Assembly (NCBI RefSeq): GCF_016482825.1
Contig: NZ_JAEMNV010000008.1
Location: forward strand, 186,001 to 250,000
DNA length: 64,000 nt
Source: Antrihabitans stalagmiti
GTDB taxonomy: Bacteria; Actinomycetota; Actinomycetes; Mycobacteriales; Mycobacteriaceae
Direction: 5' to 3'
This document shows positions 35,872 through 49,937 of this stretch, piece by piece (positions within the stretch are counted from its first letter, which is position 1; every line of letters starts with the position of its first letter). The notes below the pieces were generated by a model. It saw nothing but the letters and a program-made list of their open reading frames with translations. It was not told the DNA's origin and did not search any database. The translations under genes were made by a program, and so were the position numbers.

Positions 35872-36330
35872 TCAGGCAGAAACTTCGGTGTCCCAGTCCG
35901 GTGCCGGGCGTAGCCGTCCCCCGTCGCCCACCGCGTCCTCGACGTCGTGCAAAAACGCACCGACGCGGGTGTAGAAGTCGTCCGCCTCGGCAACTGTGAC
36001 ATCACGTGAGAGACCAGCTTCCAACGCAGCCCTCGTTGCGGAGTGATCGGCGAAGTAGTCGGCCCACATCACGAACTCCGGGGCCGCGCGGGCCATCAGG
36101 ACCCAGGCGCTGCGCGACCGCTCGCGGGTCGGCTTGGCCGGTGCGCTGCCGGCGAGAAGCGCGGCAGCGCCGCGGAGCGCAGCGAGATAGGCAACCTGGA
36201 AGCGCTCTCTCGGATCGTCTTCGCCGACTGCATCCATCAACAGGCGATCAGCACGCTCCAGCAGGACCCGCGGACCTCGCGTGTTCCCGGGACCGTGGGT
36301 TAGCTTGGTCCGAGCAATCTGACCAGCCAT
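35872..36330 (-). CDS. HEPN-domain protein, SAV_6107-like
   Basis: The 152-residue, all-helical protein resembles the actinobacterial SAV_6107-type HEPN group. YTRVGAFLHDVEDAV near the C-terminus contains an R-x5-H pattern close to the HEPN RNase motif, and ERFQVAYLAALRGAAALLAG is a typical helix. Free-standing HEPN proteins can be nucleases or structural partners; no antitoxin-like gene is adjacent, so I do not call it a toxin. It is divergent from the GNAT gene. Confidence 0.75.
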   Translation of the reverse strand: MAGQIARTKLTHGPGNTRGPRVLLERADRLLMDAVGEDDPRERFQVAYLAALRGAAALLAGSAPAKPTRERSRSAWVLMARAAPEFVMWADYFADHSATRAALEAGLSRDVTVAEADDFYTRVGAFLHDVEDAVGDGGRLRPAPDWDTEVSA

Positions 36331-36523: not shown

Positions 36524-37192
36524 GTGGAGATCGACCCCGCCATCAACCCAGCGGACGCTCCCGTCGTCGTCGATCTGTCCGCAGCCGACGTGCGAGCGAG
36601 ACTGCGCGAAGCCTTGGCGATCTATGTCGCAGCCATGGAGTACCCGCGCGGAACCGAACACCATCGCGCACCCATGTGGGCCGAACATATTTCGCGGCCG
36701 GGGTGGCGTGCTGTCGGCGCGGTACTCGCCGACCCGAACTCGCACGCGAATCGAGACTCACCACTGGTCGCCGTTGCCTACGGCTACCGCGGCGCACCGC
36801 ATCAGTGGTGGCATCAGCAGGTCCACGACGGCATGCGCCGATTCGGTTGGACGGAGGAAGCCACGCTCGCGATGCTGTCGAGTTATTTCGAACTCACCGA
36901 ACTGCACGTCCACCCCGCCGCGCAGGGACACGGTCTCGGCGAGGCCATGTTGCGACGACTCCTCGACGTCCGCACCGAACGAACGGCACTGCTCTCCACT
37001 CCCGAGGTCGACGGCGAGAGCAACCGCGCCTGGCGGCTGTACCGCAGACTCGGCTTCACCGACGTCGTCAGGCAGTTCACCTTCACCGGCGACAGCAGGC
37101 CGTTCGCTGTGCTCGGCAGGCCACTGCCGTTGCACCTGGCTGCGCACACGCTGCGGACGCCGCTGACGACCGATCCGGCCCCGCCACTGTGA
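36524..37192 (+). CDS. GNAT-family N-acetyltransferase
   Basis: The 222-residue protein has the acetyl-CoA-binding pattern LTELHVHPAAQGHGLGEAML, in which AQGHGLG stands for the Q/R-x2-G-x-G/A loop, and RLYRRLGF near the C-terminus. It corresponds to Rv2170 in gene order. The start is the GTG at 36524 with AAGGG suitably upstream; a GTG at 36515 is the alternative. Its TGA overlaps the GTG of crtO, so it leads a coupled chain of genes. Confidence 0.82.
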   Translation: MEIDPAINPADAPVVVDLSAADVRARLREALAIYVAAMEYPRGTEHHRAPMWAEHISRPGWRAVGAVLADPNSHANRDSPLVAVAYGYRGAPHQWWHQQVHDGMRRFGWTEEATLAMLSSYFELTELHVHPAAQGHGLGEAMLRRLLDVRTERTALLSTPEVDGESNRAWRLYRRLGFTDVVRQFTFTGDSRPFAVLGRPLPLHLAAHTLRTPLTTDPAPPL

Positions 37193-38751
37193 TCGACGTC
37201 GTCATTGTCGGCTCGGGACACAACGCTCTCGTCGCCGCGTGTTATCTGGCCGAAGCGGGCTGGTCCGTCGAGGTTCTCGAACGCGACACCGTCTTCGGCG
37301 GTGCCGTATCGACGGTGGAACGCTTTCCTGGACACCGCGTCGATCGTGGCTCGTCGGCGCACATCATGATCCGGCACACCGGCATCCTCGACGAGCTCGA
37401 CCTGGACGCACACGGCCTGCGTTATGTCGACTGCGATCCATGGGCCTTCGCGCCTGCCGGTGCCGACGGCGCTCCCCCGATCGTCTTCCACCGAGACCTC
37501 GACCGCACCTGCGAATCGATCCGCGCCGCCTGCGGAACGAGCGATGCCGAGAACTACCGCAGCTTCACCGCCGACTGGGCACCACGAAGCGCTCGGGTGA
37601 TGCGCGCATTCGGCGGACCGCCGACCGGCCCGAAACTACTGCGCTCGTTCTGGGGACTCGACGTCGGACCGAGCCCGAGCGAACTCTCCCGCCAGTTCCT
37701 CACCTCGGGAAATGCGTTGCTGGACGCCACTTTTCGCAGCGAGCGACTCAAGGCCGCACTCGCCTGGTTCGGCGCCCAGTCCGGACCGCCGATGTCGGAG
37801 CCGGGTACGGCACCCATGGTCGGGTTCGCCGCTCTTATGCACACACTGCCGCCGGGCAGGGCGGTCGGCGGCAGCGGCGCACTGACCGAGGCACTTGCGT
37901 CGAAGCTGCAGGCGGACGGCGGCACCATCGTCGGCGGTGACGCCGTCGTCGCACTGCGCCACGCTCGCGACGGTTGGCACGCCGAGACCGCGAACGGACG
38001 TTCCGTCCACGCCCGCCGCGTCGTCGCGGGATGTCACATCTCGACGACCCTCGACCTGCTCGAACGCGGCGGCCACGACCCGACGGTTCTCGACAGTTGG
38101 CGCAGACGTATCCGGGTCGGGCCGGGAATCGGTATGGTCGTTCGACTGGCGACAAATGCGCTCCCTCGCTACTCCGGAGCCGACTCCGTCGCGGAATCGA
38201 CGTCGGGCCTGCAGCTCCTCGTCGCCGACCGAAGTCAGTTGCACCTCGCACACGGCGCCACCCTGGCAGGGGAATTGCCGCATCGCCCAGCTGTTCTGGC
38301 GATGAGCTTCAGCGGCATCGACCCGTCCGTCTGTCCCCCGGGCCAGCACCAGGTGTCACTGTGGTCGCAGTGGCATCCGTACGCGCCGAGCGGTGGCCGG
38401 AACTGGGACGACCTCGCTGAGGGCGAAGCCGACCGGATCGTTGCCGAGGTCGACGCTGTCGCACCGGGCTTCGCAGCATCGGTGCTCGACCGGCACGTGC
38501 AGACACCGAAGGACCTGGAACGCGAGATGGGCTTGCTCGGGGGCAACATCATGCATCTCGACATGTCGCTCGATCAGATGATGATGTGGCGACCGATCCC
38601 CGAACTCTCCGGACATCGCGTTCCCGGCTCGAAGGGCCTCTACCTGACGGGCGCGTCCACACACCCCGGCGGTGGGGTGAGCGGGGCAAGCGGTCGAACA
38701 GCAGCACGACTCGCGTTGTCCGACGCACGACTACCGTGGCGGCGGAGATGA
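37189..38751 (+). CDS. crtO: CrtO-type beta-carotene ketolase
   Basis: The 520-residue flavoprotein has an N-terminal FAD motif (VIVGSGHNALVAACYLAEAG) and a C-terminal FAD signature (GLYLTGASTHPGGGVSGASG). It closely resembles CrtO of Rhodococcus erythropolis as I remember it, including RFPGHRVDRGSSAHIMIRHT and PPMSEPGTAPMVGFAALMH. CrtO adds a 4-keto group to beta-ionone rings and is related to CrtI desaturases, so a desaturase role is the alternative. The GTG start at 37189 overlaps the GNAT stop as GTGA, and its own stop overlaps the next start as ATGA. Confidence 0.87.
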   Translation: MIDVVIVGSGHNALVAACYLAEAGWSVEVLERDTVFGGAVSTVERFPGHRVDRGSSAHIMIRHTGILDELDLDAHGLRYVDCDPWAFAPAGADGAPPIVFHRDLDRTCESIRAACGTSDAENYRSFTADWAPRSARVMRAFGGPPTGPKLLRSFWGLDVGPSPSELSRQFLTSGNALLDATFRSERLKAALAWFGAQSGPPMSEPGTAPMVGFAALMHTLPPGRAVGGSGALTEALASKLQADGGTIVGGDAVVALRHARDGWHAETANGRSVHARRVVAGCHISTTLDLLERGGHDPTVLDSWRRRIRVGPGIGMVVRLATNALPRYSGADSVAESTSGLQLLVADRSQLHLAHGATLAGELPHRPAVLAMSFSGIDPSVCPPGQHQVSLWSQWHPYAPSGGRNWDDLAEGEADRIVAEVDAVAPGFAASVLDRHVQTPKDLEREMGLLGGNIMHLDMSLDQMMMWRPIPELSGHRVPGSKGLYLTGASTHPGGGVSGASGRTAARLALSDARLPWRRR

Positions 38752-39575
38752 CACTCACACAGCGAATTCCGGCCGGTCTCGCGGTGGCGACCATCGCCGC
38801 GCAGATCGCGTACCCGCTGACCAACGGCGACGTGCGAGATCAGGTGACGATGACAGTCGTCGCACTGTTCGCCTCGACGTGCCTCGGGCACGCCGTGCTC
38901 GTGCGTGGCACCGCGTGGACCCTCGGCTTCCTGGCATGCACGGGCGGACTCGGGCTTGCGGTCGAAATGCTCGGCACAGCAACGGGTTTCCCGTTCGGCC
39001 CGTACGACTACGCGGTCGGCAGGCTCGGCAACACGGTCGGCGGGGTCCCCCTCGCGGTCGCGTTGGCCTGGACGGCAGGGATTTACACGGTGTGGACCGT
39101 CGCGACGATATTGTTCCGCCGCAACGGATTACAAATTCTCGCGACCGGCTTCGGCGCGGTCGGTTGGGACCTCTATCTCGACCCGCAGATGGTTGCCGAC
39201 GGCCAGTGGACCTGGCACTCCGAGATAGCTGGCCTACCGGGACTCGGACACATACCCGTCACCAACTATCTGGGCTGGTTCGCTGTCGCCGTCACGATGG
39301 CATTTGCGATCTCACGGCTCCCCCGCTCCGACGTCCCGGACGTCCCCGACCGAATGCTTGCGGTGCCAATCGCACTGTTCGTGTGGACCTGGCTCGGCTC
39401 CGCGCTCGCTCACGCGGTGTTTCTGTCCGCACCGGAACTGCGCTTCTCCGCGATCTACGGTCTTGTCGTCATGGGTGTGCTCGGCGTCCCGCTGCTGGCA
39501 CGTATCGCGCCCGAGGTCGCAGCTCGAGTGACCAGCTATGCCGAACTACGAGTCCACGCACCCAAGAATCGCTGA
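38748..39575 (+). CDS. cruF: CruF-like carotenoid biosynthesis membrane protein
   Basis: The 275-residue protein has about seven hydrophobic helices. FPFGPYDYAVGRLG, PLAVALAWTAGIY, GWDLYLDPQMV and GHIPVTNYLGWF are signatures of the CruF family (DUF422), integral membrane 1',2'-hydratases that hydrate the open psi-end of gamma-carotene-type pigments. The ATG at 38748 overlaps the crtO stop as ATGA. Some members are only named carotenoid biosynthesis protein, so the reaction is inferred. Confidence 0.83.
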   Translation: MTLTQRIPAGLAVATIAAQIAYPLTNGDVRDQVTMTVVALFASTCLGHAVLVRGTAWTLGFLACTGGLGLAVEMLGTATGFPFGPYDYAVGRLGNTVGGVPLAVALAWTAGIYTVWTVATILFRRNGLQILATGFGAVGWDLYLDPQMVADGQWTWHSEIAGLPGLGHIPVTNYLGWFAVAVTMAFAISRLPRSDVPDVPDRMLAVPIALFVWTWLGSALAHAVFLSAPELRFSAIYGLVVMGVLGVPLLARIAPEVAARVTSYAELRVHAPKNR

Positions 39576-39639
39576 TCGCCGCCGGTCGGAGCAGTTCGGG
39601 CGAATGTCGATGACGCGACGACGGCGCTCGGATGGCAGG

Positions 39640-40425
39640 ATGACCTCTGTGCCGCTGACTTCGAGGGACTCCACACGCGGCCGCGTACGTCGCGTCGCCG
39701 CTCTGACCATGCTCGCGCTGCTCGTTCCGCTGCTTGCGGGCTGCCTGCGCGTCCAGGTCTCGATGGGCGTTTCCGCCGACGATCGCGTGTCCGGCCAGAT
39801 CGTCGCCGCGACGGTGCCGAAAGACGAAGCCGACAAGGGTCCGCAGCTGGAACCGCCGGAGTCACTCGAATCGAAAGTCCGTGTGCAGGAGTACAAGCAG
39901 GACGGCTACGTCGGCAGCCAGGCCTTCTTCCAGGGACTGTCGTTCGGCGACGTGCAGCAGCTCGGTCTGATGTCGGATCAGAGCGCGGGTGCGTTCCAGT
40001 TGCAGCTGCAGCGCAGTGGCGACCTCGTGACATTGACCGGCAAGGTCGACCTGAAGTCCGTTCCAGCACAGGGCACCGACGTGCAGTTCACCATCGCCTT
40101 TCCCGCCCGCGTCGCAACGACGAACGGCACGAGGGAAAACGACTCGATCGTCTCGTGGAAGCTGCCACCCGGTGAGGTGACGACGATCCGCGCAGAGGTC
40201 AGATACTCGGATCCGAACACCCGCAGCTTCGCAGGCTGGGCGGGAATCGTCGGCGGCGCGACACTCGGCGTTGCCGCGATCATCGCCGCGCTCGCCTACG
40301 TCACCCGCGATCCGAGGCCTAGGCCGGGCGGCGGCGGTGCCGCCGCGGGCGGCCTCTCGTTGCCGGGCAAGCTCTCGGGCAAGCTGGGCGGCCGCAAGAA
40401 GGAAGAGCAGACCGAAGACGCGTGA
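39640..40425 (+). CDS. lppM: Lipoprotein LppM
   Basis: From the ATG at 39640 the product is 261 residues. The lipobox is L-L-A-G-C (Cys35), followed by LRVQVSMGVSADDRVSGQI. SDPNTRSFAGWAG precedes a C-terminal helix (about 205-225) and a basic, Gly-rich tail. It resembles M. tuberculosis LppM (Rv2171), which affects phagosome maturation. Other in-frame starts are ATG 39604, ATG 39610 and GTG 39649; AGGA suits the last. Its stop overlaps the next start as GTGA. Confidence 0.85.
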   Translation: MTSVPLTSRDSTRGRVRRVAALTMLALLVPLLAGCLRVQVSMGVSADDRVSGQIVAATVPKDEADKGPQLEPPESLESKVRVQEYKQDGYVGSQAFFQGLSFGDVQQLGLMSDQSAGAFQLQLQRSGDLVTLTGKVDLKSVPAQGTDVQFTIAFPARVATTNGTRENDSIVSWKLPPGEVTTIRAEVRYSDPNTRSFAGWAGIVGGATLGVAAIIAALAYVTRDPRPRPGGGGAAAGGLSLPGKLSGKLGGRKKEEQTEDA

Positions 40426-41570
40426 GGGTAGCGCGGCTCGGCACAGTTCTCGCCGTCGCCGGAGCGACGGTCGCCGTGTACAACCGGTGCACCGTCGGGC
40501 AACTGTGTTCCGGGCGAACGACGTCGGAGCCTGTGACGGTGTGCGTGCCCGCCCGCAACGAAGCACAGCGCCTGCCGGAACTGATCGGTGATCTGCGCGC
40601 ACAGACCGGTGTCGCTGCGTTGCGCGTGCTGATTCTCGACGACAACTCCACCGACGACACCTACGCCGCCGCTGTTGCCGCGATCGACGGCGACACCCGA
40701 TTCGCACTGCATCACAGCGAAGCAGACCCCGCACCTGGCTGGACGGGCAAGTCTGCAGCATGTTCGACACTCGCCGATCTCGCTGAGAGTTCACAAGGTG
40801 CCGATGCAGGCACCATCGTGTTTCTCGACGCCGACGTCCGGCTCGAACCTGGCGCGCTCGCGGCAGCCGTCGACGAATCGAAACGGTCCGGCGTTGCGCT
40901 GCTGACCGCGTGGCCTCGACAGGACGCGCTCACCCCGACCGAACGTCTGATTCAGCCGCTGCTGTGCTGGTCGTGGGCTTCGACGCTGCCGATCGTGCCG
41001 TCGCAGCGGTCCCTGCGTCCGTCGATGGCTGTCGCCTGTGGGCAGTTTCTCGTGTTCGATGCCGCGTCCTATCGCGCGGTCGGCGGCCACAGCGCGGTTG
41101 CCGCAAGCGTCACCGAGGATCTCGATCTGGCCCGCGCCATCCGCCGCGCAGGCATGCGAACCTCTGTCGTCGGGGCCGGTTCGCTTGCCCGCTGTCGGAT
41201 GTATCGAACCTCCGACGATCTGGAGCAGGGCTACGAGCGCTGGCTGTGGACCGCATACGGTTCGGTCGCAGGCAGTGCCGGGGTCGGCGTCTACGCGGTG
41301 CTGGCCTATCTGATTCCGCCGCTCGCAGCGGTTGTCGGCAGCGAGCGCCGGTGGGGACTGATCGGGTACGCCGCCGCCGTCGCAGGCAGGGTGGCTGCCC
41401 GATCGACCGAAAGCGGCGGGACGCCGACGACGACCTTGCCGGACGCCCTGCTGCACCCGGTGTCGGTGCTGCTGTATCTACGGTTGACCTGGCGTTCGCA
41501 CCGGTCGCGGCGACGCGGCACGCTCGCCTGGAAGGGCAGGGCGCTAAACGTGGGTGACAGCGAGACCTAG
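40422..41570 (+). CDS. Family 2 glycosyltransferase, CruC/CruG-like
   Basis: The 382-residue protein has a GT-A fold: VCVPARNEAQRLPELI, ILDDNSTDDT, GWTGKSAAC, the DXD-like FLDADVRLEPGAL, and VTEDLDLARAIRRAG near 235. Hydrophobic helices follow from about 275. Together with cruF and crtO it may glycosylate the 1'-hydroxy carotenoid, as CruC or CruG do elsewhere; transfer to another lipid is possible. The GTG start overlaps lppM by 4 bp. The last 27 bp overlap the convergent metF-like gene. Confidence 0.78.
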   Translation: MRVARLGTVLAVAGATVAVYNRCTVGQLCSGRTTSEPVTVCVPARNEAQRLPELIGDLRAQTGVAALRVLILDDNSTDDTYAAAVAAIDGDTRFALHHSEADPAPGWTGKSAACSTLADLAESSQGADAGTIVFLDADVRLEPGALAAAVDESKRSGVALLTAWPRQDALTPTERLIQPLLCWSWASTLPIVPSQRSLRPSMAVACGQFLVFDAASYRAVGGHSAVAASVTEDLDLARAIRRAGMRTSVVGAGSLARCRMYRTSDDLEQGYERWLWTAYGSVAGSAGVGVYAVLAYLIPPLAAVVGSERRWGLIGYAAAVAGRVAARSTESGGTPTTTLPDALLHPVSVLLYLRLTWRSHRSRRRGTLAWKGRALNVGDSET

Positions 41571-42512
41571 GTTGGCCAACACTTCGCTCGTCGCACGAGC
41601 AAAGTTCAACGTGATGAAGTGCAGCGCCGGTGCGCCCTCGGCGATCAGACGCTCGCCCATCTTGGTGGCGACGTCGATGCCGACCTCACGTACGGCGGCC
41701 CGATTTTCCTCCGGCCCGTCGCCCGCGGCGGCAGCGAGGCGTGCCTCCAACGCCGGCGGAAGCACAGATCCGGACAACTCGACCATCTTGCGGACCGAGC
41801 GCAGCGACGTGATCGGCATCAGCTCGGGGATGATCGGCTTGGCGGCCTGCTCGGCGTCGAGCAGTGCGACCCGATCACGCAACCGCAGGTAGTGCTCGAC
41901 GTCGAAGAACATCTGGGTTATCGAATACTCCGCGCCCGCACGCAGTTTCGAGACCAGGAACTTGGTGTCGTGCGCGAGATCGGGCGAACGATGGTGACCC
42001 TCGGGGAACGACGCGACGCCGACGTGGAAGTCACCGAGATCACGCACCAGCCGAACCAGTTCGTCGGCATATTCGACGCCGTCGGGATGCTTGCACCACT
42101 CGCCCATCGGATCGCCGGGCGGGTCGCCGCGTAGCACGAGGATGTTGCGAATGCCGCGGTCCGCGTATGCGCCGACCATCGATCGCAGCTCGTCGACACT
42201 GTGCGATACCGCGGTCAGGTGTGCGACCGGCAGCAGCGTCGTCTCCTCGGCAAGCTGGCCGGTGACGCGAACAGTGCGGTCGCGCGTCGATCCGCCCGCG
42301 CCGTAGGTCATCGATACGAACGCCGGTTGCAGCCGCTCGAATTCGCGCACAGCTCGCCAGAGCCGCGCCTCTGCGGCAGCGTCTCGCGGTGGGGAGAATT
42401 CGACGGAGAACGGCACTCGGCCGCCCTCGTCGGTCCGCAATCGGTCCACGATCGAAGGCGTTCGGGATACCCAGCCCGCGCTGTCGCGGCCCCGGACGGA
42501 ATCGAATGTCAC
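41544..42512 (-). CDS. metF: Methylenetetrahydrofolate reductase-like protein
   Basis: The 322-residue TIM-barrel protein has VPFSVEFSPPRD, FVSMTYGAGGSTRDRT, RNILVLRGDPPGDP and YSITQMFFDVEHY, all MetF signatures. MetF makes 5-methyltetrahydrofolate for methionine synthesis. It corresponds to Rv2172c, a divergent MetF homologue. The GTG at 42512 is the start; the gene runs against its neighbours and is divergent from the prenyl synthase. Confidence 0.85.
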   Translation of the reverse strand: MTFDSVRGRDSAGWVSRTPSIVDRLRTDEGGRVPFSVEFSPPRDAAAEARLWRAVREFERLQPAFVSMTYGAGGSTRDRTVRVTGQLAEETTLLPVAHLTAVSHSVDELRSMVGAYADRGIRNILVLRGDPPGDPMGEWCKHPDGVEYADELVRLVRDLGDFHVGVASFPEGHHRSPDLAHDTKFLVSKLRAGAEYSITQMFFDVEHYLRLRDRVALLDAEQAAKPIIPELMPITSLRSVRKMVELSGSVLPPALEARLAAAAGDGPEENRAAVREVGIDVATKMGERLIAEGAPALHFITLNFARATSEVLANLGLAVTHV

Positions 42513-42631
42513 CGGGCAAGCATAGGTGAGCCGGCTCGGAGTGCAGGTGTGGCCGGGCTCGTCGGCTCACCCCACTATGGTTGGGATGCACCCGCACCCG
42601 AGATCGTTCTCGGCCGATCTGGGAGGTAGCA

Positions 42632-43738
42632 CTGTCCACCGGAGTTGTCCCGATCTCGACCGAACCCGCAGAACTTTCCGCCGCATTCGAGTCGGCTCTG
42701 CGCGCATTCTTCGCGTCGCGGCGGGAGTTGATCGATCCGGTCGGCGGCGATTTCGCAGCCGCGGTGCGCCACCTCGAAGAGTTCGTCCTGCGGGGCGGCA
42801 AACGTATTCGGCCGGCCTTCGCCTGGACCGGTTGGCTGGGTGCCGGTGGCGATCCGGCAGTCGACCCGGTCAGCGCCTCCGGTGTCCTACAGGTCTGCGC
42901 GGCACTCGAACTCGTGCAGGCCTGCGCGCTGATTCACGACGACATCATCGATTCCTCGCACACCAGGCGCGGCTTCCCGACCGTTCACGTGACCTTCGCC
43001 GATCGGCACACCTCGCACGGTTGGTCGGGTGAAGCGGCACAGTTCGGTTCCGCTGCCGCGATTCTGCTCGGCGATCTAGCGCTGGCCTGGGCGGACGACA
43101 TGGTGCGTGAAGCGCAACTCGACCCGGCTGCGGTCGCTCGGTTGGCTCCGGTCTGGTCGGCGATGCGCACCGAGGTCCTCGGCGGTCAGTTCCTCGACAT
43201 CGCCGGTGAGGCGAGTGGCGACGAAAGCGTCGAGGCCGCGCTCCGCATCAATCGCTACAAGACCGCGGCCTACACCATCGAACGGCCACTGCACATCGGA
43301 GCGTTGCTCGCCGGTGCCGACGCATCGCTCATCGAGGCATACCGGACGTTCGGTACCGATATAGGCATCGCGTTTCAGCTGCGTGACGACCTGCTCGGCG
43401 TCTTCGGCGACCCCTCGATCACCGGTAAACCGTCCGGCGACGACCTGCGGGAAGGCAAACGCACGGTGCTCTACGCCGTCGCCCTGCAGTGCGCCGACGC
43501 GAGTGCGCCCGGTGCGGCGCAACGGCTGCGCGACGGGATCGGCACCGACCTTTCCGATACCGAGGTCGACGACATCCGCAGGACACTGATCGATCTCGGC
43601 GCTGTCGACGACGTCGAGCATCGGATCGGCACGCTCACCGCTCGAGCACTCACCGCGTTGGACAGCAGCAGCGCGACGCCACCGGTCAAAGACCGCTTGC
43701 GGGCGATGGCGTTGGCGGCGACGTCGCGCAATTCCTGA
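42632..43738 (+). CDS. Geranylgeranyl-type polyprenyl diphosphate synthase (IdsA2-like)
   Basis: The 368-residue trans-prenyltransferase makes C15-C20 diphosphates from IPP. The first Asp-rich motif DDIID is at 103-107 and the second is DDLLG at 252-256; FVLRGGKRIRPAF is the IPP-binding part. No ATG, GTG or TTG suits the start. A CTG at 42632 has GGGAGG 5 nt upstream and is taken here; a TTG at 42581 lacks a ribosome site. Matches Rv2173 in position. It could supply GGPP to the crtB product encoded just downstream. Confidence 0.85.
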   Translation: MSTGVVPISTEPAELSAAFESALRAFFASRRELIDPVGGDFAAAVRHLEEFVLRGGKRIRPAFAWTGWLGAGGDPAVDPVSASGVLQVCAALELVQACALIHDDIIDSSHTRRGFPTVHVTFADRHTSHGWSGEAAQFGSAAAILLGDLALAWADDMVREAQLDPAAVARLAPVWSAMRTEVLGGQFLDIAGEASGDESVEAALRINRYKTAAYTIERPLHIGALLAGADASLIEAYRTFGTDIGIAFQLRDDLLGVFGDPSITGKPSGDDLREGKRTVLYAVALQCADASAPGAAQRLRDGIGTDLSDTEVDDIRRTLIDLGAVDDVEHRIGTLTARALTALDSSSATPPVKDRLRAMALAATSRNS

Positions 43739-43863
43739 CCCGGCGCCCGGCCATCGCGAGGCAGAAGCGTGGTTTTCGCCCGCTAGCTACTAAACTCGGT
43801 ACCCGACCGGACACTTCCACGGCCAATGCGGCCTGCGCACCTTCAGGGGAGGAAACACAGCAG

Positions 43864-45513
43864 ATGTCGCTCCTCACCTCGCGAACCAGATTCTCCGCCG
43901 CGTCCCGCACCATGTCGCACTTCGTCCGCAGCCCCGAGGGGCATGCCGCGGTACTCGGTTTCGTCGGCTCGGTCATGATCATGTTCGGTGGCTTCGGCGC
44001 AGGCAGTGTTCGCCGCCAGGATCCGCTGCTCGAATCGGCACATCTGTCGTGGTTGCGCTACGGACACGGCCTCGCCCTGTCGACCGCATTCGTATGGATC
44101 GGCGTCGTATTGATGATCACCGCGTGGGTTCGGCTCGGGCGAGCGACCATCGCGGGTGGCGTCACCCTCAACGAACTGCGCGCCATCGTCCCGATGTGGA
44201 TCGGACCACTGCTGCTCGCGGTCCCGATGTTCAGCCGCGATGCCTACTCCTACCTCGCTCAAGGCGCCCTGCTGCGTGACGGCTTCGACCCCTACGCCGT
44301 CGGTCCCGTTGCCAATCCCGGTGTGCTGTTGGACAACGTCAGCAACGTATGGACGACGACGACTGCGCCGTACGGCCCGATTTTTCTGCTGCTCGGCAAG
44401 GCGATCACAACGATCACCGGCGAGAACGTCGTCGCGGGCACCATGCTGTTGCGGCTGACGATGCTGCCCGGTCTTGCGCTGATGATGTGGGCGGTCCCCC
44501 ACATCGCCCGCCACCTCGGCGGTAAGCCCGCTGTTGCACTGTGGCTCGCCGTCCTCAATCCCCTTGTGCTGATTCACCTCATCGGCGGCGTGCACAACGA
44601 GATGCTGATGGTCGGCCTGATGGCCGCAGGCATCGCGCTCGTCCTCGAACATCACCACGTCGCAGGCATCGTCGTAGTCGCAGTCGGCGTCGCCATCAAG
44701 GCGACCGCTGGTATCGCACTGCCGTTCCTGGTGTGGATCTGGATGGTGCACGAACGCGAGCGCCGCGCCGAACTCGCTGCACGCAACGGTACGACCGAGC
44801 CCGAACGGCACAGCGAGATCGGGTTGTTCCTGCGAACGGCCAGTGCGGGGGTCGGCGTCTTCGCAGCCGTCTTCGTGGCAGCGTCGGCGATCGCGGGCGT
44901 CGGGATCGGCTGGCTCACAGCGTTGTCCGGCTCCGCCAAGATCATCAACTGGTTGTCGCTGCCGACGATCATGGCGCACCTGGTGACGGTCGGAACGTCG
45001 TGGTTCGCCGATGTGCGGCTCGCACCCGTTCTCGAGGTGACGCGGTTGATGTGCGCGATCGCGCTGCTGGTGATTCTCGTGTGGACCTGGTGGCGCTTCC
45101 GGCGCAGCGAACGCGAAGCGGTCATGGGCATCTTGATCGCGTTCGTCGCGATCGTCATCCTCTCCCCCGCCGCGCTGCCGTGGTACTACTCGTGGCCACT
45201 TGCGCTCGCGGCCGGATTCGCGCTCTCGACAACGACATTGATGATCCTGGTCGGGCTCTCGACCTGGCTCATGCTGGTGTTCCAGCCGGACGGTTCGATC
45301 GGGCTCTACACGTTCCCGCACGTCGCCGCCGCAACCTTCGCAGCCATCGTCGCCGCGTTGTCGTTGCGTACGGTCGATCCCCTACGGCTGCGCGCAACAC
45401 CCGACGAGGTTGTCGGTCCCGCGTCGAAACCGGTTGTCCGAACCGACGACGTGCCACAGCAGCCCGCACCTGCGGACCGAGTACAACCATCGACGGATCG
45501 AGCCGGCAGATGA
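43864..45513 (+). CDS. mptA: Alpha-(1->6)-mannopyranosyltransferase MptA
   Basis: The 549-residue GT-C membrane enzyme extends the mannan backbone of lipomannan from polyprenyl-phosphate mannose. About twelve helices start at residue 26. SRDAYSY at 124-130 carries the GT-C acidic residue (Asp126), and LNPLVLIHLIGGVHNEMLM is typical of the MptA/MptB group. The ATG at 43864 is preceded by GGGGAGGAA. Position matches Rv2174. The TGA overlaps the crtB start as ATGA. Confidence 0.9.
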   Translation: MSLLTSRTRFSAASRTMSHFVRSPEGHAAVLGFVGSVMIMFGGFGAGSVRRQDPLLESAHLSWLRYGHGLALSTAFVWIGVVLMITAWVRLGRATIAGGVTLNELRAIVPMWIGPLLLAVPMFSRDAYSYLAQGALLRDGFDPYAVGPVANPGVLLDNVSNVWTTTTAPYGPIFLLLGKAITTITGENVVAGTMLLRLTMLPGLALMMWAVPHIARHLGGKPAVALWLAVLNPLVLIHLIGGVHNEMLMVGLMAAGIALVLEHHHVAGIVVVAVGVAIKATAGIALPFLVWIWMVHERERRAELAARNGTTEPERHSEIGLFLRTASAGVGVFAAVFVAASAIAGVGIGWLTALSGSAKIINWLSLPTIMAHLVTVGTSWFADVRLAPVLEVTRLMCAIALLVILVWTWWRFRRSEREAVMGILIAFVAIVILSPAALPWYYSWPLALAAGFALSTTTLMILVGLSTWLMLVFQPDGSIGLYTFPHVAAATFAAIVAALSLRTVDPLRLRATPDEVVGPASKPVVRTDDVPQQPAPADRVQPSTDRAGR

Positions 45514-46472
45514 CCACCCCAACTCCGCAGCTCAGCGTCGAACTGGAAGCCGCCTACGACCTGTGCCGGGAAGTAGCGGTCGGCCACGGCCGCACGTACT
45601 ACCTTGCGACGCGGCTGCTACCTGCCGACCGTCGGCCCGGATTTCATTCGCTCTACGCGTTTGCACGCACGATCGACGATCTGGTCGACGTCGAGGCGGG
45701 TTCGAGCCGTACCTGGGAGGAATGCGCCCGAGAGCTCGACCGGATCGAGGCACAGCTGCACGAGCTGATCACCGCGGACGATCAGCGCACGGTCGAGCTC
45801 GATCCCAACTGGCGACCGACTCTGCTCGCGTTTGCCGACACCATGGCTCGCTACGAGGTCGATCCCGACCACGTCTGGGCGTTTCTCGGCGCGATGCGAA
45901 TGGATCTGCCTGGCACGGAACGCTTCCGAACGAGATACACGACGATGGCCGAGCTTCGCGAATACATGGAAGCGTCCGCCGCGACGATCGGTATGCAACT
46001 GCTCGCGGTGCTCGGCGCCGTCGTGCCGCTCGAGGTGGCGCGACCCTGTGCTGCTGCACTCGGCCAGGCATTCCAGCTCACCAACTTCATCCGCGATGTC
46101 GGTGAAGATCTGCAGCGCGGGCGACTGTACCTGCCCGCGGACGAACTCGCGGTGTTCGGCGTCGACCACGACCTGTTGCTGCACTGCCAGCGAACCGCGA
46201 CCACCGATCGTCGTGTTCGCAATGCGCTTGCGCACTTCGCCGCCGTCAACCGATCGATCTACCGCACTGCCCGGCCCGGTATCGACATGCTGGACCCGCA
46301 GGTCAGGCCTGCGATGCGCGCCGCATACACCCTCTACGCCGACATCCTCGACGAGATCGAGAAGGCCGACTTCCGCGTGCTCGACCGCAGAGCCGTCGTT
46401 CCGAGATCTCGCCGGTTCGCTGTCGCCGCGCCGGAGTTCGCGCGTGCGCTTGCTGCGCGACGCCTCGGCTGA
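45510..46472 (+). CDS. crtB: Phytoene synthase
   Basis: The 320-residue head-to-head synthase condenses two GGPP molecules to phytoene, the first carotenoid step. Asp-rich motifs are DDLVD at 56-60 and DVGED at 196-200, with FIRDVGEDLQRGRLYLP being highly typical. The ATG at 45510 lies within the end of mptA, so translation is coupled to a lipomannan enzyme. M. tuberculosis has no gene here. It converges on the Rv2175c-like gene with a 30-bp gap. Confidence 0.93.
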   Translation: MTTPTPQLSVELEAAYDLCREVAVGHGRTYYLATRLLPADRRPGFHSLYAFARTIDDLVDVEAGSSRTWEECARELDRIEAQLHELITADDQRTVELDPNWRPTLLAFADTMARYEVDPDHVWAFLGAMRMDLPGTERFRTRYTTMAELREYMEASAATIGMQLLAVLGAVVPLEVARPCAAALGQAFQLTNFIRDVGEDLQRGRLYLPADELAVFGVDHDLLLHCQRTATTDRRVRNALAHFAAVNRSIYRTARPGIDMLDPQVRPAMRAAYTLYADILDEIEKADFRVLDRRAVVPRSRRFAVAAPEFARALAARRLG

Positions 46473-46502: not shown

Positions 46503-46871
46503 CTAGAACGCCATCGCTTGCGCTCGGCGGATGATTTCGCGCGCTTGGTGCCCACGAAGAGCCTGCGCGGGTGTCCCGGACAGGCTGTCGTCCTCGGTGA
46601 ACAGCCAGCGCAGCGTCTCAGCCTCGGAGTAGCCGCCGTCGCGAAGTACGGCGAGCAGACCGGGCAGGAACTTGACGATGGTGCCGTCGTCGTTGAAGAA
46701 CGCATCGGGCACGCCGATGTAGCCGTCGCGCTTCACCGCGAGCAGTTGCCTGTCCCGGAGTAGCTGGTGGACCCGCGTCACCACGACGCCGAGATGTTTT
46801 GCCACGTCAGGAAGTTGCAGCAGCGAAACCGAGGCTGGCAGCACGTCGTCGCTGTATGGAATTGCACTCAC
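46503..46871 (-). CDS. Rv2175c-like winged-helix DNA-binding protein
   Basis: The 122-residue protein has a helix-turn-helix region LLQLPDVAKHLGVVVTRVHQLLRDRQLLAVKRDG and a C-terminal helical part. It resembles Rv2175c, a DNA-binding protein phosphorylated by PknL in M. tuberculosis. There it neighbours pknL; here the fusion gene and its regulator lie between them. The start is the GTG at 46871. Its DNA targets are unknown. Confidence 0.88.
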   Translation of the reverse strand: MSAIPYSDDVLPASVSLLQLPDVAKHLGVVVTRVHQLLRDRQLLAVKRDGYIGVPDAFFNDDGTIVKFLPGLLAVLRDGGYSEAETLRWLFTEDDSLSGTPAQALRGHQAREIIRRAQAMAF

Positions 46872-46931: not shown

Positions 46932-49886
46932 TCAGCGCCCCCGCCACACCGGATTGCGCTTCTCTGCGAATGCGCGCACCCCTTCGGTAGCGTCGTCGGA
47001 AAACAGTGCGGTGGCGGCGATCTCGGTTTGTTTGTCGAAGCCCTCGTCGTGGGTCCAGTCGGCTGACTCGTCGACGATCCGCTTGCTCGCGGCGAGGCTC
47101 AGCGGCGCGTTGACAGCAATCTGTTCGGCGAGTTCGAGCGCGACGTCGAGTGCCTTGCCTGGTTCGGCGAGCCGGTTGACCAACCCGAGATCGGCGAGCC
47201 TGGTTGCCTGCATCGGATCGCCGGTCAGAGCCAGTTCCATCGCGATGTTGCGCGGCAGTCGTTCTCGCAGCCGCATGACGCCGCCGCCCGCGGCTACGAG
47301 GCCGCGTTTCGGCTCGGGGATGCCGAACTGCGAGTTGTTCGCAGCCACGATCAGGTCGGCGGACAGAGCGAGTTCGCAACCGCCGGCGAGAGCAGGTCCC
47401 TCGACGGCGGCGATGAGGGGTTTGCTCGGCGGCTTGGCCGAGATACCGAGCGGCCCACGCTTCTCGGTGAGTGGATATTCCCCGCGCGCAGCGGCTTTGA
47501 GGTCCATACCCGAGCAGAACGACCCTCCCGTGCCGGTGAGGATCGCGACACGCGCGTCGGAATCGGCCTCGAACGCATCGATCGCGCGTTCCAACGCCGT
47601 CGCTGTCGCGAGGTCGACGGCATTGCGAACATGCGGCCTGTTCAGCGTTATCACGGTGACGGCACCGCGACGTTCGACCAGCACGGGTGCGGGCGGTGGC
47701 TCAGGCAGATCGGTCGCGACCTTGGAATCGATCGTCAGTTCGTCCGAGGCAAGAACGGTCACGGGCAGACCGAGTGCATCACCGTCGACGAGTTCGGCAA
47801 CGATCTCGGACTGCGTCGTGCGTACGAGCACACGTTCGCCGCCGGGGGTGAGCACGCTGAGGACGCCGGCTTCGGGTCCGCCGTCCCTGTCGAACGGGAC
47901 CGTGTACGCCTCGACGACCGCCGGACCCCGATAATCGGACCGCGCGGGGCGAGACGGTGGGTTGTCCACGATCGGCTGCAGATACCGATAGTCCTCAGCA
48001 GGCGGAGTCGCGGAGTAGATGCCGATCGCGTGTTTGGTGACGTACCAGCCGAGCGAGGTCGACAACCCGAACGACGACGGATCGTCACGTAGGCGCCCGA
48101 CGAGCGTTGCAACGGCATGCGAACCGTAGTTGTTTCCAGGACCGCCGCCGAAGGTGAGGCCGCCGGTCACCGTCAGCGGGCGCGTCGGATCGTCGGCGTC
48201 GAGGCCGAGTTCGCGTGCTGCGATCTGCACGGCCGACGGGAAGCACGCGTAGAGGTCGACGTGCTTGACGTCGTCGATGCCGATTCCGCTGTGCCGCAAC
48301 GCCGAAGCACCGATCGCGTTGATGGCCGGTGACGCAGCGAGCTCCGCGCGTTCGGAGACGAACCACTCGTCGTACGCCGATGCTCCCGCGTGCAGGAAGA
48401 CCCATTTGTCCTGCGGCACACCGGCTGCCTCCGCGGCCGCGACGCTGCACAGGATGATGCCGCTTGCCATGTCGACCTGGAGGTTCGCGCACAGCAGCTT
48501 GGTGTACGGGGCAGAGATCAACCGATTCGACTCGGCAGGGTTCGCGATGGCATCAGCATCGAATTCTTCCGGCTGCCAAGCATTTTCGTTTGCCGCAGCC
48601 ACACTCGAGTACCGCGACCACAATTCGGAGATTGCCTCGGTGTGTTCCTTCGGCGCCCGGCCGAGTACCCGCCTGTTCGCAGATTCGAGCAGGGCGTACA
48701 TGTAGATCGGGGCGCCGAGCCCGACCCGGGCCTCGGACTCGTTGTTGGCCGCCCTGTCCGTTCCGATGGTCGGCGCGGGAGTGACGTCGACTCCCTGTTC
48801 GGGCCAATGCAACTCGACGCCGGTCTTCGCTGCCGCAGCGAGCGTTGCGCCTGCTTCCGCTCCGGCGAGCAGAACGACGTCGAGTTGACCGTCCATCACT
48901 GCCTGCGCCGCACTGTTGATCATCACCTGTGCACCGTCACCGCCGAACGGACTCGACTGCACAGAGGTGGCGCGGCGCGCGTCGAGTGCATCGGCAACCA
49001 GCGCACCCATGTCGCGGTACTGCCACGACGCGCTCGCGACGGAGTAGACCGCATCGGCCGACCGTAGTAGTGACTCCCCCGCGCCACTGTCCTTTCCTGC
49101 TCGTCGGAGCGCTTGAACAGCAAGGGCGGCAGGATCTTTCGAGAATGCGGGAGCACGCTGGGTAACTTGGCCGACGCCGACGATCACCGGAGTGTTCGGC
49201 GGGAGCGTTCGACCCGATGCGTGATGGAACACCGGTGCGCGACGTGCCCCTGGCGCCGAGATCGGACCTGCGGCAGCGATCGCAGCAGGTAGTTTGCCGA
49301 GCGACTCGGCCATCGCCTCGCCGAGGCTACGAACGACCGACGCACCCATCGGCCCCTCGATCGGCTGCCCGGACAGTCCGGCGTCGAAGTAGACGGTCGT
49401 CGTGGCTCCTGCGGAACGAGTCGTGAGCCAGAACCCGACCGTCAGACCCATCGGCCCGACTCCCTGTAGTTCGACGACCGAGCCGTCGTTGCCTGCAACG
49501 GTCCACCGAATGTCGGCGGGCATGCCCATGAACTTGCCCTGCTGGACGAACGTCGCACCTGGGTCGAGGGCGGTCGGCGGGTCGCCACGCCACCCGACGT
49601 GAGTCGTGAGCCATTCGCCGAACCGGTTGGGGTCGGCGAGATAGGCAGCGACCGAGTCGGCCGCAGCTGGGACTTCGACGCTAGCGTGCGTCTGCCGGAC
49701 GAAGTCGGCGACACCTGCGGGCGGCACGTAGTCACCGAGGTCGGCTGCGGGCGTCTCGCCCGTGCCGAACACACCGCCGACCAGGTCGGCGAGGATTCGT
49801 GGATCTTTTCGAACCGTCGCCGCAAGCTGCCCGACGGCACGCACGCTCGCCCGAAGCTGCCGAACCGACCTGTCGATCCCACTCAT
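46932..49886 (-). CDS. SRPBCC - thiolase-like - crotonase fusion protein
   Basis: The 984-residue protein joins three parts. An SRPBCC-like domain (about 65-205) has HASVEVPAAADSVAAYLADP. A thiolase-fold domain (about 230-680) has TPVIVGVGQVTQRAP and TFGGGPGNNYGSHA, with a small domain to about 730. A crotonase domain (about 733-984) has FCSGMDL, GGCELA and FGIPEPK, keeping both hydratase glutamates. Where thiolases have the nucleophile Cys, this one reads SSPFGGDGAQ without Cys. Substrate unknown, perhaps a fatty or steroid-type acyl-CoA. ATG 49886 is used; GTG 49895 is possible. Divergent from the TetR gene. Confidence 0.82.
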   Translation of the reverse strand: MSGIDRSVRQLRASVRAVGQLAATVRKDPRILADLVGGVFGTGETPAADLGDYVPPAGVADFVRQTHASVEVPAAADSVAAYLADPNRFGEWLTTHVGWRGDPPTALDPGATFVQQGKFMGMPADIRWTVAGNDGSVVELQGVGPMGLTVGFWLTTRSAGATTTVYFDAGLSGQPIEGPMGASVVRSLGEAMAESLGKLPAAIAAAGPISAPGARRAPVFHHASGRTLPPNTPVIVGVGQVTQRAPAFSKDPAALAVQALRRAGKDSGAGESLLRSADAVYSVASASWQYRDMGALVADALDARRATSVQSSPFGGDGAQVMINSAAQAVMDGQLDVVLLAGAEAGATLAAAAKTGVELHWPEQGVDVTPAPTIGTDRAANNESEARVGLGAPIYMYALLESANRRVLGRAPKEHTEAISELWSRYSSVAAANENAWQPEEFDADAIANPAESNRLISAPYTKLLCANLQVDMASGIILCSVAAAEAAGVPQDKWVFLHAGASAYDEWFVSERAELAASPAINAIGASALRHSGIGIDDVKHVDLYACFPSAVQIAARELGLDADDPTRPLTVTGGLTFGGGPGNNYGSHAVATLVGRLRDDPSSFGLSTSLGWYVTKHAIGIYSATPPAEDYRYLQPIVDNPPSRPARSDYRGPAVVEAYTVPFDRDGGPEAGVLSVLTPGGERVLVRTTQSEIVAELVDGDALGLPVTVLASDELTIDSKVATDLPEPPPAPVLVERRGAVTVITLNRPHVRNAVDLATATALERAIDAFEADSDARVAILTGTGGSFCSGMDLKAAARGEYPLTEKRGPLGISAKPPSKPLIAAVEGPALAGGCELALSADLIVAANNSQFGIPEPKRGLVAAGGGVMRLRERLPRNIAMELALTGDPMQATRLADLGLVNRLAEPGKALDVALELAEQIAVNAPLSLAASKRIVDESADWTHDEGFDKQTEIAATALFSDDATEGVRAFAEKRNPVWRGR

Positions 49887-49937
49887 ACGTCTCACCCATC
49901 TTTTGTCGTCGCCCCGTCATCGAACCAACGATTCTGC

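What the first reader, a model, noticed from the sequence alone, without database searches (positions are those of the whole stretch)
37189..46472. Carotenoid genes interleaved one by one with lipomannan and envelope genes
crtO, a cruF-like gene, a GT2 gene and crtB are inserted at three places into the order seen in M. tuberculosis as Rv2170, lppM, Rv2172c, idsA2, mptA and Rv2175c. Each joins its neighbour by a 4-bp overlap (GNAT-crtO, crtO-cruF, lppM-GT2, mptA-crtB). This predicts a glycosylated, keto and 1'-hydroxy carotenoid made in step with envelope lipids. It also suggests that idsA2 in mycobacteria is a remnant of this pathway, and that LppM may handle such lipids. The functional link is inference.
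Basis: partly seen in the sequence, partly recalled or inferred. Interest (0 to 1): 0.8.

Follow-up and report, generated by a model that had tools for sequence, protein, structure and literature searches.

The report
Interleaved carotenoid and lipomannan gene cluster
A soil bacterium keeps pigment-making genes threaded between cell-envelope sugar-lipid genes, and comparison with its relatives suggests that the matching stretch in mycobacteria is what remained after the pigment genes were lost.

Summary
In detail: ten genes, their order and four 4-bp overlaps are in the sequence. The history is the reverse of 'inserted'. Among fetched loci with GNAT, cruF and mptA (69; sample enriched for cruF), 68 share one order and 66 carry crtI between idsA2 and mptA. 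The window is one of three that lack crtI; its spacer still matches the crtI-mptA spacer of two relatives. None of 33 Mycobacterium loci has a crt gene there, so the mycobacterial order reads best as a deletion remnant. 'idsA2 is a remnant' is supported: mycobacterial IdsA2 nests among carotenoid-locus IdsA2, and the residue linked to product length is small in 104 of 104 crtB+ loci and bulky only in 5 of 37 loci without crt genes. 'LppM may handle such lipids' is not supported: branch rates pair LppM with MptA (rank 1 of 55) and least with the GT2 (55 of 55), while CrtO, CruF, GT2, CrtI and CrtB covary. 'Rv2172c' is positional only; the window gene is canonical MetF. The predicted pigment type is known from Rhodococcus. 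No function was assayed; depth of ancestry beyond the family is uncertain.

The parts
36524..37192 (+). GNAT acetyltransferase (Rv2170 position); the open frame begins at 36329
   Evidence: PF13508 34.5 bits; start chosen by eye and the ~200-aa length of relatives
37189..38751 (+). CrtO-like FAD enzyme, probable 4-ketolase
   Evidence: NF045689 264 bits, below its cut-off of 1000
38748..39575 (+). CruF-like carotenoid 1',2'-hydratase
   Evidence: PF04240 109 bits, cut-off 25; the only PF04240 match in the genome
39538..40425 (+). LppM lipoprotein (lipobox LLAGC; likely start 39604-39649)
   Evidence: PF21946 201 bits; PDB 2nc8 E 2e-43
40422..41570 (+). membrane GT2 glycosyltransferase, HpnB/CruG-like
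   Evidence: PF00535; TIGR03469 91 and NF045692 73.5 bits, both below cut-off; model pLDDT 89.4 with GT-A domain and terminal helices
41544..42512 (-). canonical MetF-type methylenetetrahydrofolate reductase
   Evidence: PF02219 270 bits, no PF19345 hit
42581..43738 (+). IdsA2, probable geranylgeranyl diphosphate synthase; Cys at -5 of the first Asp motif
   Evidence: best PDB match 3lk5, C. glutamicum GGPP synthase
43739..43863 (.). spacer left where crtI is missing
   Evidence: aligns to the crtI-mptA spacer of L005 and L006, scores 34 and 35 against best of 200 shuffles 17 and 15; L007 weak (18 v 15), L048 none (13 v 16)
43864..45513 (+). MptA alpha-1,6-mannosyltransferase
   Evidence: TIGR03459 (short name crt_membr) 676 bits, cut-off 439
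45510..46472 (+). CrtB-like phytoene synthase
   Evidence: PF00494 211 bits; NCBIfam equivalogs below cut-off
46503..46871 (-). Rv2175c-type DNA-binding protein
   Evidence: PF21531 and PF18367

Best explanation
Two functional modules share one chromosomal cluster. The carotenoid module is IdsA2 (C20 diphosphate), CrtB (phytoene), CrtI (lycopene), a lycopene cyclase encoded elsewhere, CrtO (4-keto), CruF (1'-hydroxy) and GT2 (glucoside). The mannan module is MptA with LppM, which I propose to be MptA's partner on the outer face of the membrane, binding the phosphatidylinositol mannosides or lipomannan that MptA extends. The fuller cluster was present in the ancestor of this family and has been eroded repeatedly. 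The window genome lost crtI from it and now has its only crtI in a second crt cluster; Mycobacterium lost all carotenoid genes, leaving idsA2, mptA and lppM. Shown: gene content, order, recurrent absence, spacer match, residue pattern, rate covariation. Inferred: direction of change (loss), reactions, LppM-MptA partnership, co-transcription.
For: Order kept in 68 of 69 loci with GNAT, cruF and mptA, crtI in place in 66. No crt gene in 33 of 33 Mycobacterium loci (one, L066, is cut by its contig), not even weak hits. Intermediate states: two g6 loci, sister to Mycobacterium in the MptA tree (support 85), and L082 keep crtO alone. Parts of idsA-crtI-mptA-crtB occur in 4 of 11 fetched f12 loci and in L101. 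Each of 4 genomes of the genus has one CrtI over cut-off, in the mptA locus in three and in the second cluster in the window genome; two relatives' second clusters lack crtI. Mycobacterial IdsA2 nests inside carotenoid-locus IdsA2. Rates: LppM-MptA 0.64, rank 1 of 55, first in 264 of 300 bootstraps; mean within the five Crt/GT genes 0.34, all 10 pairs positive; mean of these with LppM/MptA -0.11. Second set without cruF: LppM-MptA first of 10 pairs in three variants. LppM binds phosphatidylinositol mannoside (passage of PMC6151718).
Against: Change counts on the tree cannot tell gain from loss and the root rests on one long outgroup row. The f12 CrtI rows do not fall outside the family's CrtI but beside L023/L024 (97*), and f12 CrtB L095 groups with the second-cluster CrtB (89), so transfer between families is possible and ancestry beyond the family is weak. 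4 of 10 non-MptA-linked CruF loci in Mycobacterium and 3 in g5 show that CruF-GT2 also lives apart from this locus. CruF-GT2 co-occurrence on the tree rests on 5 independent pairs, median p 0.0625. LppM-MptA falls to rank 2-3 in some variants and CrtO-CruF to 23 on log rates. IdsA2 leans only weakly to the carotenoid module (0.13-0.20 v 0.02-0.09). Two proteins outside the cytoplasm may share rates for other reasons.
Confidence: 0.68

Rival explanations
1. One reading: carotenoid genes were inserted into an older envelope gene order, and LppM carries carotenoid glycolipids.
For: lppM sits between cruF and GT2 and overlaps GT2 by 4 bp in 36 of 82 loci. In 13 Nocardia loci where the upstream block is inverted or not within reach of mptA, the two that show it (L142, L152) keep lppM between cruF and GT2. 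CrtO, CruF and GT2 are absent from the 11 f12 loci, so these three may indeed be additions at the family's base.
Against: LppM occurs without cruF/GT2 in 46 loci; LppM-GT2 is the lowest of 55 rate correlations, CruF-LppM rank 43; the separate CruF-GT2 pairs of L058-L064 have no LppM.
Confidence: 0.12
2. Plain adjacency: two unrelated essential-type and pigment clusters that drift together without functional meaning.
For: Passages of PMC5550956 call a saccharide-terpene (carotene) hybrid family found in all their strains probably unrelated neighbours; I cannot show that it is this locus. Rates show two modules, not one. Metabolically unrelated metF sits in the middle.
Against: mptA lies between crtI and crtB, with a 4-bp mptA-crtB overlap in 72 of 103 loci, and the order is kept in 68 of 69 loci under many genus labels.
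Confidence: 0.2
3. Mutual dependence: carotenoid and mannan synthesis are coupled through a shared isoprenoid pool and translational coupling, so IdsA2 serves both the pigment and polyprenyl carrier lipids.
For: Overlap counts; a passage of PMC12035560 reports a proposed role of Rv2173 in glycosyl carrier lipids, hinted at by mptA next door.
Against: IdsA2-MptA rate correlation is 0.02; no expression data.
Confidence: 0.25

Closest known systems
Rhodococcus keto and glucosyl monocyclic carotenoid pathway (Tao and Cheng 2004; Osawa 2011; Takaichi 1990/1997, all as cited in PMC7502451 and PMC4365757, passages seen)
   Same: gamma-carotene route with CrtO ketolase, 1'-hydroxy group and glucoside
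   Different: Osawa's scheme, as cited, names CrtC, CruC and CruD; this locus offers CruF-like and CruG/HpnB-like proteins and no evident acyltransferase
CruF/CruG of cyanobacteria and CruF of Deinococcus (passage of PMC6013536)
   Same: PF04240 hydratase with a GT2 beside or near it
   Different: all NCBIfam CruF and CruG equivalog cut-offs missed; lppM lies between the two genes
Mycobacterial Rv2170-lppM-Rv2172c-idsA2-mptA-Rv2175c
   Same: GNAT, LppM, IdsA2, MptA and Rv2175c in one order
   Different: no carotenoid genes in 33 of 33 loci; metF replaced by or absent in favour of the PF19345 family where checked
C. glutamicum IdsA, the major GGPP synthase of carotenogenesis (Heider 2014, cited in PMC5401885, passage seen)
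   Same: window IdsA2's best PDB match is 3lk5 from this species
   Different: that 3lk5 is the idsA product is my reading, not checked
LmcA, a mycobacterial lipid-binding protein needed for mannan polymerisation (recalled, from no call)
   Same: kind of role proposed here for LppM
   Different: unrelated gene; recalled only

Membership tests
MptA | TIGR03459 over its curated cut-off | tested here: met
   676 bits v 439
LppM | PF21946 over cut-off and match to the solved LppM | tested here: met
   201 bits v 27; 2nc8 E 2e-43
CrtO beta-carotene ketolase | NF045689 over cut-off | tested here: not met
   264 v 1000 bits; 0 of 23 genomes searched reach it, best 284, so filed as CrtO-like only
CrtO beta-carotene ketolase | ketolase activity | not testable with these tools
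   needs assay
PF04240 Caroten_synth | over Pfam cut-off | tested here: met
   109 v 25 bits
CruF equivalogs (TIGR03460, NF045693) | over curated cut-offs | tested here: not met
   80 v 154.7; 56 v 400 bits
CruG (NF045692) | over curated cut-off | tested here: not met
   73.5 v 600 bits
Phytoene synthase CrtB | SQS_PSY fold family PF00494 | tested here: met
   211 v 26 bits
Phytoene synthase CrtB | NCBIfam phytoene synthase equivalogs over cut-off | tested here: not met
   best 154.7 v 550; HpnD 158.7 v 278.6
IdsA2 / NF042416 mycobacterial FPP/GPP synthase | over curated cut-off | tested here: not met
   432 v 600 bits
C20 product type | small residue five before the first Asp motif (rule from passages of PMC12035560) | tested here: met
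   Cys in the window; product itself untested
Rv2172c family PF19345 | profile match | tested here: not met
   no hit at E<=1, PF02219 instead; profile comparison of the two sets probability 1.2%, with small alignments

The most novel reading that the evidence does not exclude
The locus is an ancient combined carotenoid-glycoside and lipomannan cluster of the family, with LppM as a periplasmic partner of MptA and with pigment and mannan assembly coupled by shared isoprenoid supply and translational coupling. Mycobacterial idsA2, mptA and lppM are its remains, and the disputed short product length of IdsA2 in part of Mycobacterium is a change that followed loss of the carotenoid genes.
Probability: 0.3. 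Interest if true: 0.82.

Novelty: new variant of a known kind. Interest (0 to 1): 0.62.

Why it matters
It gives a history for a much-studied mycobacterial gene neighbourhood. It offers an explanation for the argument over what chain length mycobacterial IdsA2 makes. It predicts that LppM, a lipoprotein linked to phagosome maturation (passages of PMC2936551), works with the mannosyltransferase MptA, which can be tested in harmless relatives. It also supplies gene candidates for the hydratase and glucosyltransferase of Rhodococcus carotenoid glucosides. I found no paper that describes this cluster or the remnant reading in ten searches of an open-access library; subscription papers were not searched. 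The short name of TIGR03459, crt_membr, suggests that curators had seen the link with carotene genes (my inference; I did not see its description text).

Tried and rejected
Rejected: LppM as carotenoid carrier. Rejected: the Rv2172c name for the window gene. Rejected: relocation of the ancestral crtI into the second cluster. The second-cluster CrtI stands apart from the Antrihabitans cluster CrtI, nearest by path to L010 and L014, though its place is unresolved.

Looked for and not found: a linked carotenoid acyltransferase in the extra DNA between GT2 and metF of L031, L034 and L033 by eye from ORF lists (no profile search); a QxxRW motif in GT2 (1 of 93); promoter or terminator signals above shuffles; a solved relative of GT2 by sequence (none at E<=0.001). 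Fold search of the GT2 model never ran: the machine was busy.

Weak or mixed: independent-pair tests for gene co-occurrence did not reach 0.05. A distance-based mirror test also put LppM-MptA first (0.66) but gave small positive values for CruF-LppM (0.19) and CruF-MptA (0.26).

Rows dropped: rate tests used 41 loci thinned from 61 with all eleven genes; L006/L105 (one genome) were left out because its CrtB lies beyond Rv2175c and is divergent; the second set used 42 of 45. The MptA tree used 68 of 161 MptA loci, picked by hand for spread. Sampling: 60 of the 100 first loci were centred on CruF, so frequencies of cruF at the locus are inflated; the 80 named loci are the best matches to an MptA alignment, mostly Nocardia, Rhodococcus and Mycobacterium.
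Full report
What is there. The window lies in a 6.39-Mb genome of the genus coded g1. One g1 genome (G249) has a contig of the same length, 725679 bases, as the Antrihabitans stalactiti contig behind L105, and both give the same gene map, so g1 is most likely Antrihabitans. Between 36329 and 46871 the profiles confirm GNAT, CrtO-like, CruF-like, LppM, GT2, MetF on the other strand, a polyprenyl synthase, MptA, CrtB-like and Rv2175c. The four 4-bp overlaps are exact. A second crt cluster on contig C1 (L004) holds crtE, crtB, crtI, crtYc, crtYd, a methyltransferase and crtU-like genes. Two lycopene-cyclase (PF05834) genes lie elsewhere.

How widespread. CruF (PF04240) is in 181 of 301 genomes and 22 of 30 genera sampled from the family. 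I fetched 60 CruF-centred and 40 MptA-centred loci and 80 named loci found by an MptA alignment, 171 after removal of duplicates, 161 with MptA. Of the 60 CruF-centred loci, 50 show MptA as well; of the ten others, one (L009) is cut before mptA, one (L037) has the block split, one (L051) is a second copy, and seven (L058-L064) are separate clusters in codes g5 and g2. Among the 69 loci with GNAT, cruF and mptA, 68 keep one order (L152 is inverted), and 66 carry crtI between idsA2 and mptA; the window, L022 and L043 do not. 62 loci hold all eleven genes. These shares are inflated by the CruF-centred sampling.

crtI in the window. Each of the four genomes of the genus has exactly one CrtI over cut-off: in the mptA cluster in three, in the second cluster in the window genome. 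The second clusters of two relatives lack crtI. The 125-bp spacer between idsA2 and mptA aligns to the DNA around or after the crtI stop in L005 and L006 far above shuffles, weakly in L007, not in L048. So crtI was removed in place, and a different CrtI, of unresolved origin, remains.

Direction of change. In the MptA tree the Mycobacterium rows form one clade, sister to two g6 loci that keep only crtO (support 85), inside a family whose other branches mostly carry the cluster. Of 33 Mycobacterium loci none has a crt gene, and no weak hits occur. Other families: 4 of 11 f12 loci have crtI and/or crtB beside idsA2 and mptA, five of the 11 are MptA paralogues with no neighbours of interest, and L101 (f7) has crtB; L102-L104 have none. 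I read this as loss. Cautions: counts of change do not give direction; the f12 CrtI and CrtB rows do not form clean outgroups; and crtO, cruF and GT2 may be true additions at the base of the family.

IdsA2. The window protein's best PDB match is C. glutamicum GGPP synthase 3lk5, then M. tuberculosis Rv2173. Passages of PMC12035560 say that the fifth residue before the first Asp motif sets product length and that Rv2173 has Trp there, fitting C10-C15. In my loci this residue is Cys, Ala, Gly or Ser in 104 of 104 crtB+ loci and 9 of 9 with only crtI or crtO; in loci with none of these it is small in 32 and Trp or Phe in 5 of 37, all five Mycobacterium. L067 (Trp) and L089 (Phe) form one supported clade inside the IdsA2 tree. 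Most mycobacterial loci here therefore keep the small residue. This supports a remnant whose product shortened later in one part of the genus.

LppM. Passages describe an original fold and binding of phosphatidylinositol mannoside (PMC6151718) and a phagosome phenotype of a mutant (PMC2936551). In my set LppM is present in 46 loci with GNAT and mptA but no cruF. On 41 loci and 79 branches the LppM-MptA rate correlation is the highest of 55 (0.64; permutation 95% of maxima 0.34, largest of 1000 0.52), LppM-GT2 the lowest (-0.39) and CruF-LppM rank 43; CrtO-GT2, CruF-GT2, CrtO-CruF and CrtI-CrtB rank 2, 3, 5 and 7. With Spearman, log rates or the longest 5, 10 or 20% of branches dropped, LppM-MptA stays at rank 1-3 and LppM-GT2 at 54-55. 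A second set without cruF again puts LppM-MptA first of ten pairs in three variants, 0.38-0.43. I conclude that LppM belongs with MptA.

Pathway. With CrtI from C1 and a cyclase from elsewhere, the genome can be expected to make a 4-keto-1'-hydroxy-gamma-carotene glucoside. Such compounds, including fatty acid and mycolic acid esters, are known from Rhodococcus (passages of PMC7502451 and PMC4365757). GT2 has a confident model with a GT-A domain and membrane helices and a DAD motif in 92 of 93. The separate CruF-GT2 pair of L058 and L063 lies beside a CrtD-like desaturase, which supports a carotenoid role for this GT2 kind. NCBIfam cut-offs for CrtO, CruF, CruG and CrtB equivalogs are all missed, so substrates are inferred.

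MTHFR. The gene between GT2 and idsA2 is PF02219 in the window and in L176, a deep Mycobacterium row, but PF19345 in L067 and L088 at the same position and strand. PF19345 is the family of Rv2172c, shown to be an FAD-independent reductase (passages of PMC8765232; that Rv2172c is in PF19345 is inferred from the family's name). Two small alignments show no significant profile similarity. This looks like replacement in place.

Noticed in passing
window 41544-42512; L067:7675-8571, L088:7735-8655, L176:7783-8763: At one position and strand, canonical MetF (PF02219) in the window and in a deep Mycobacterium row, but the mycobacterial MTHFR_2 family (PF19345) in two other Mycobacterium loci: apparent in-place replacement of one enzyme by another for the same reaction.
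   Followed up: partly
L004:3465-11165 (G000:C1) and L191, L192: Second crt cluster with crtE, crtB, crtYc, crtYd and crtU; it includes crtI in the window genome and lacks it in two relatives.
   Followed up: partly
L058-L064: Separate CruF-GT2 pairs without LppM, beside CrtD-like, CrtI, CrtE or CrtU-like genes, in codes g5 and g2 (Mycobacterium).
   Followed up: partly
window 46932-49895 (-): One 987-aa open frame matching an acetyl-CoA acetyltransferase (residues 230-719) and a crotonase (738-987): a fused or very tightly joined pair.
   Followed up: no
L076 and L080, between idsA2 and mptA: About 4-5 kb of extra DNA separates idsA2 from mptA in both g6 loci.
   Followed up: no
L006/L105 (A. 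stalactiti): CrtB lies beyond Rv2175c and is very divergent (end branch 1.89) instead of directly after mptA.
   Followed up: no
Nocardia and g3 loci: Of 46 with MptA, the GNAT-crtO-cruF-lppM-GT2 block is upstream in 27, inverted or not within about 9.8 kb in 13, and not decidable on short contigs in 6.
   Followed up: partly
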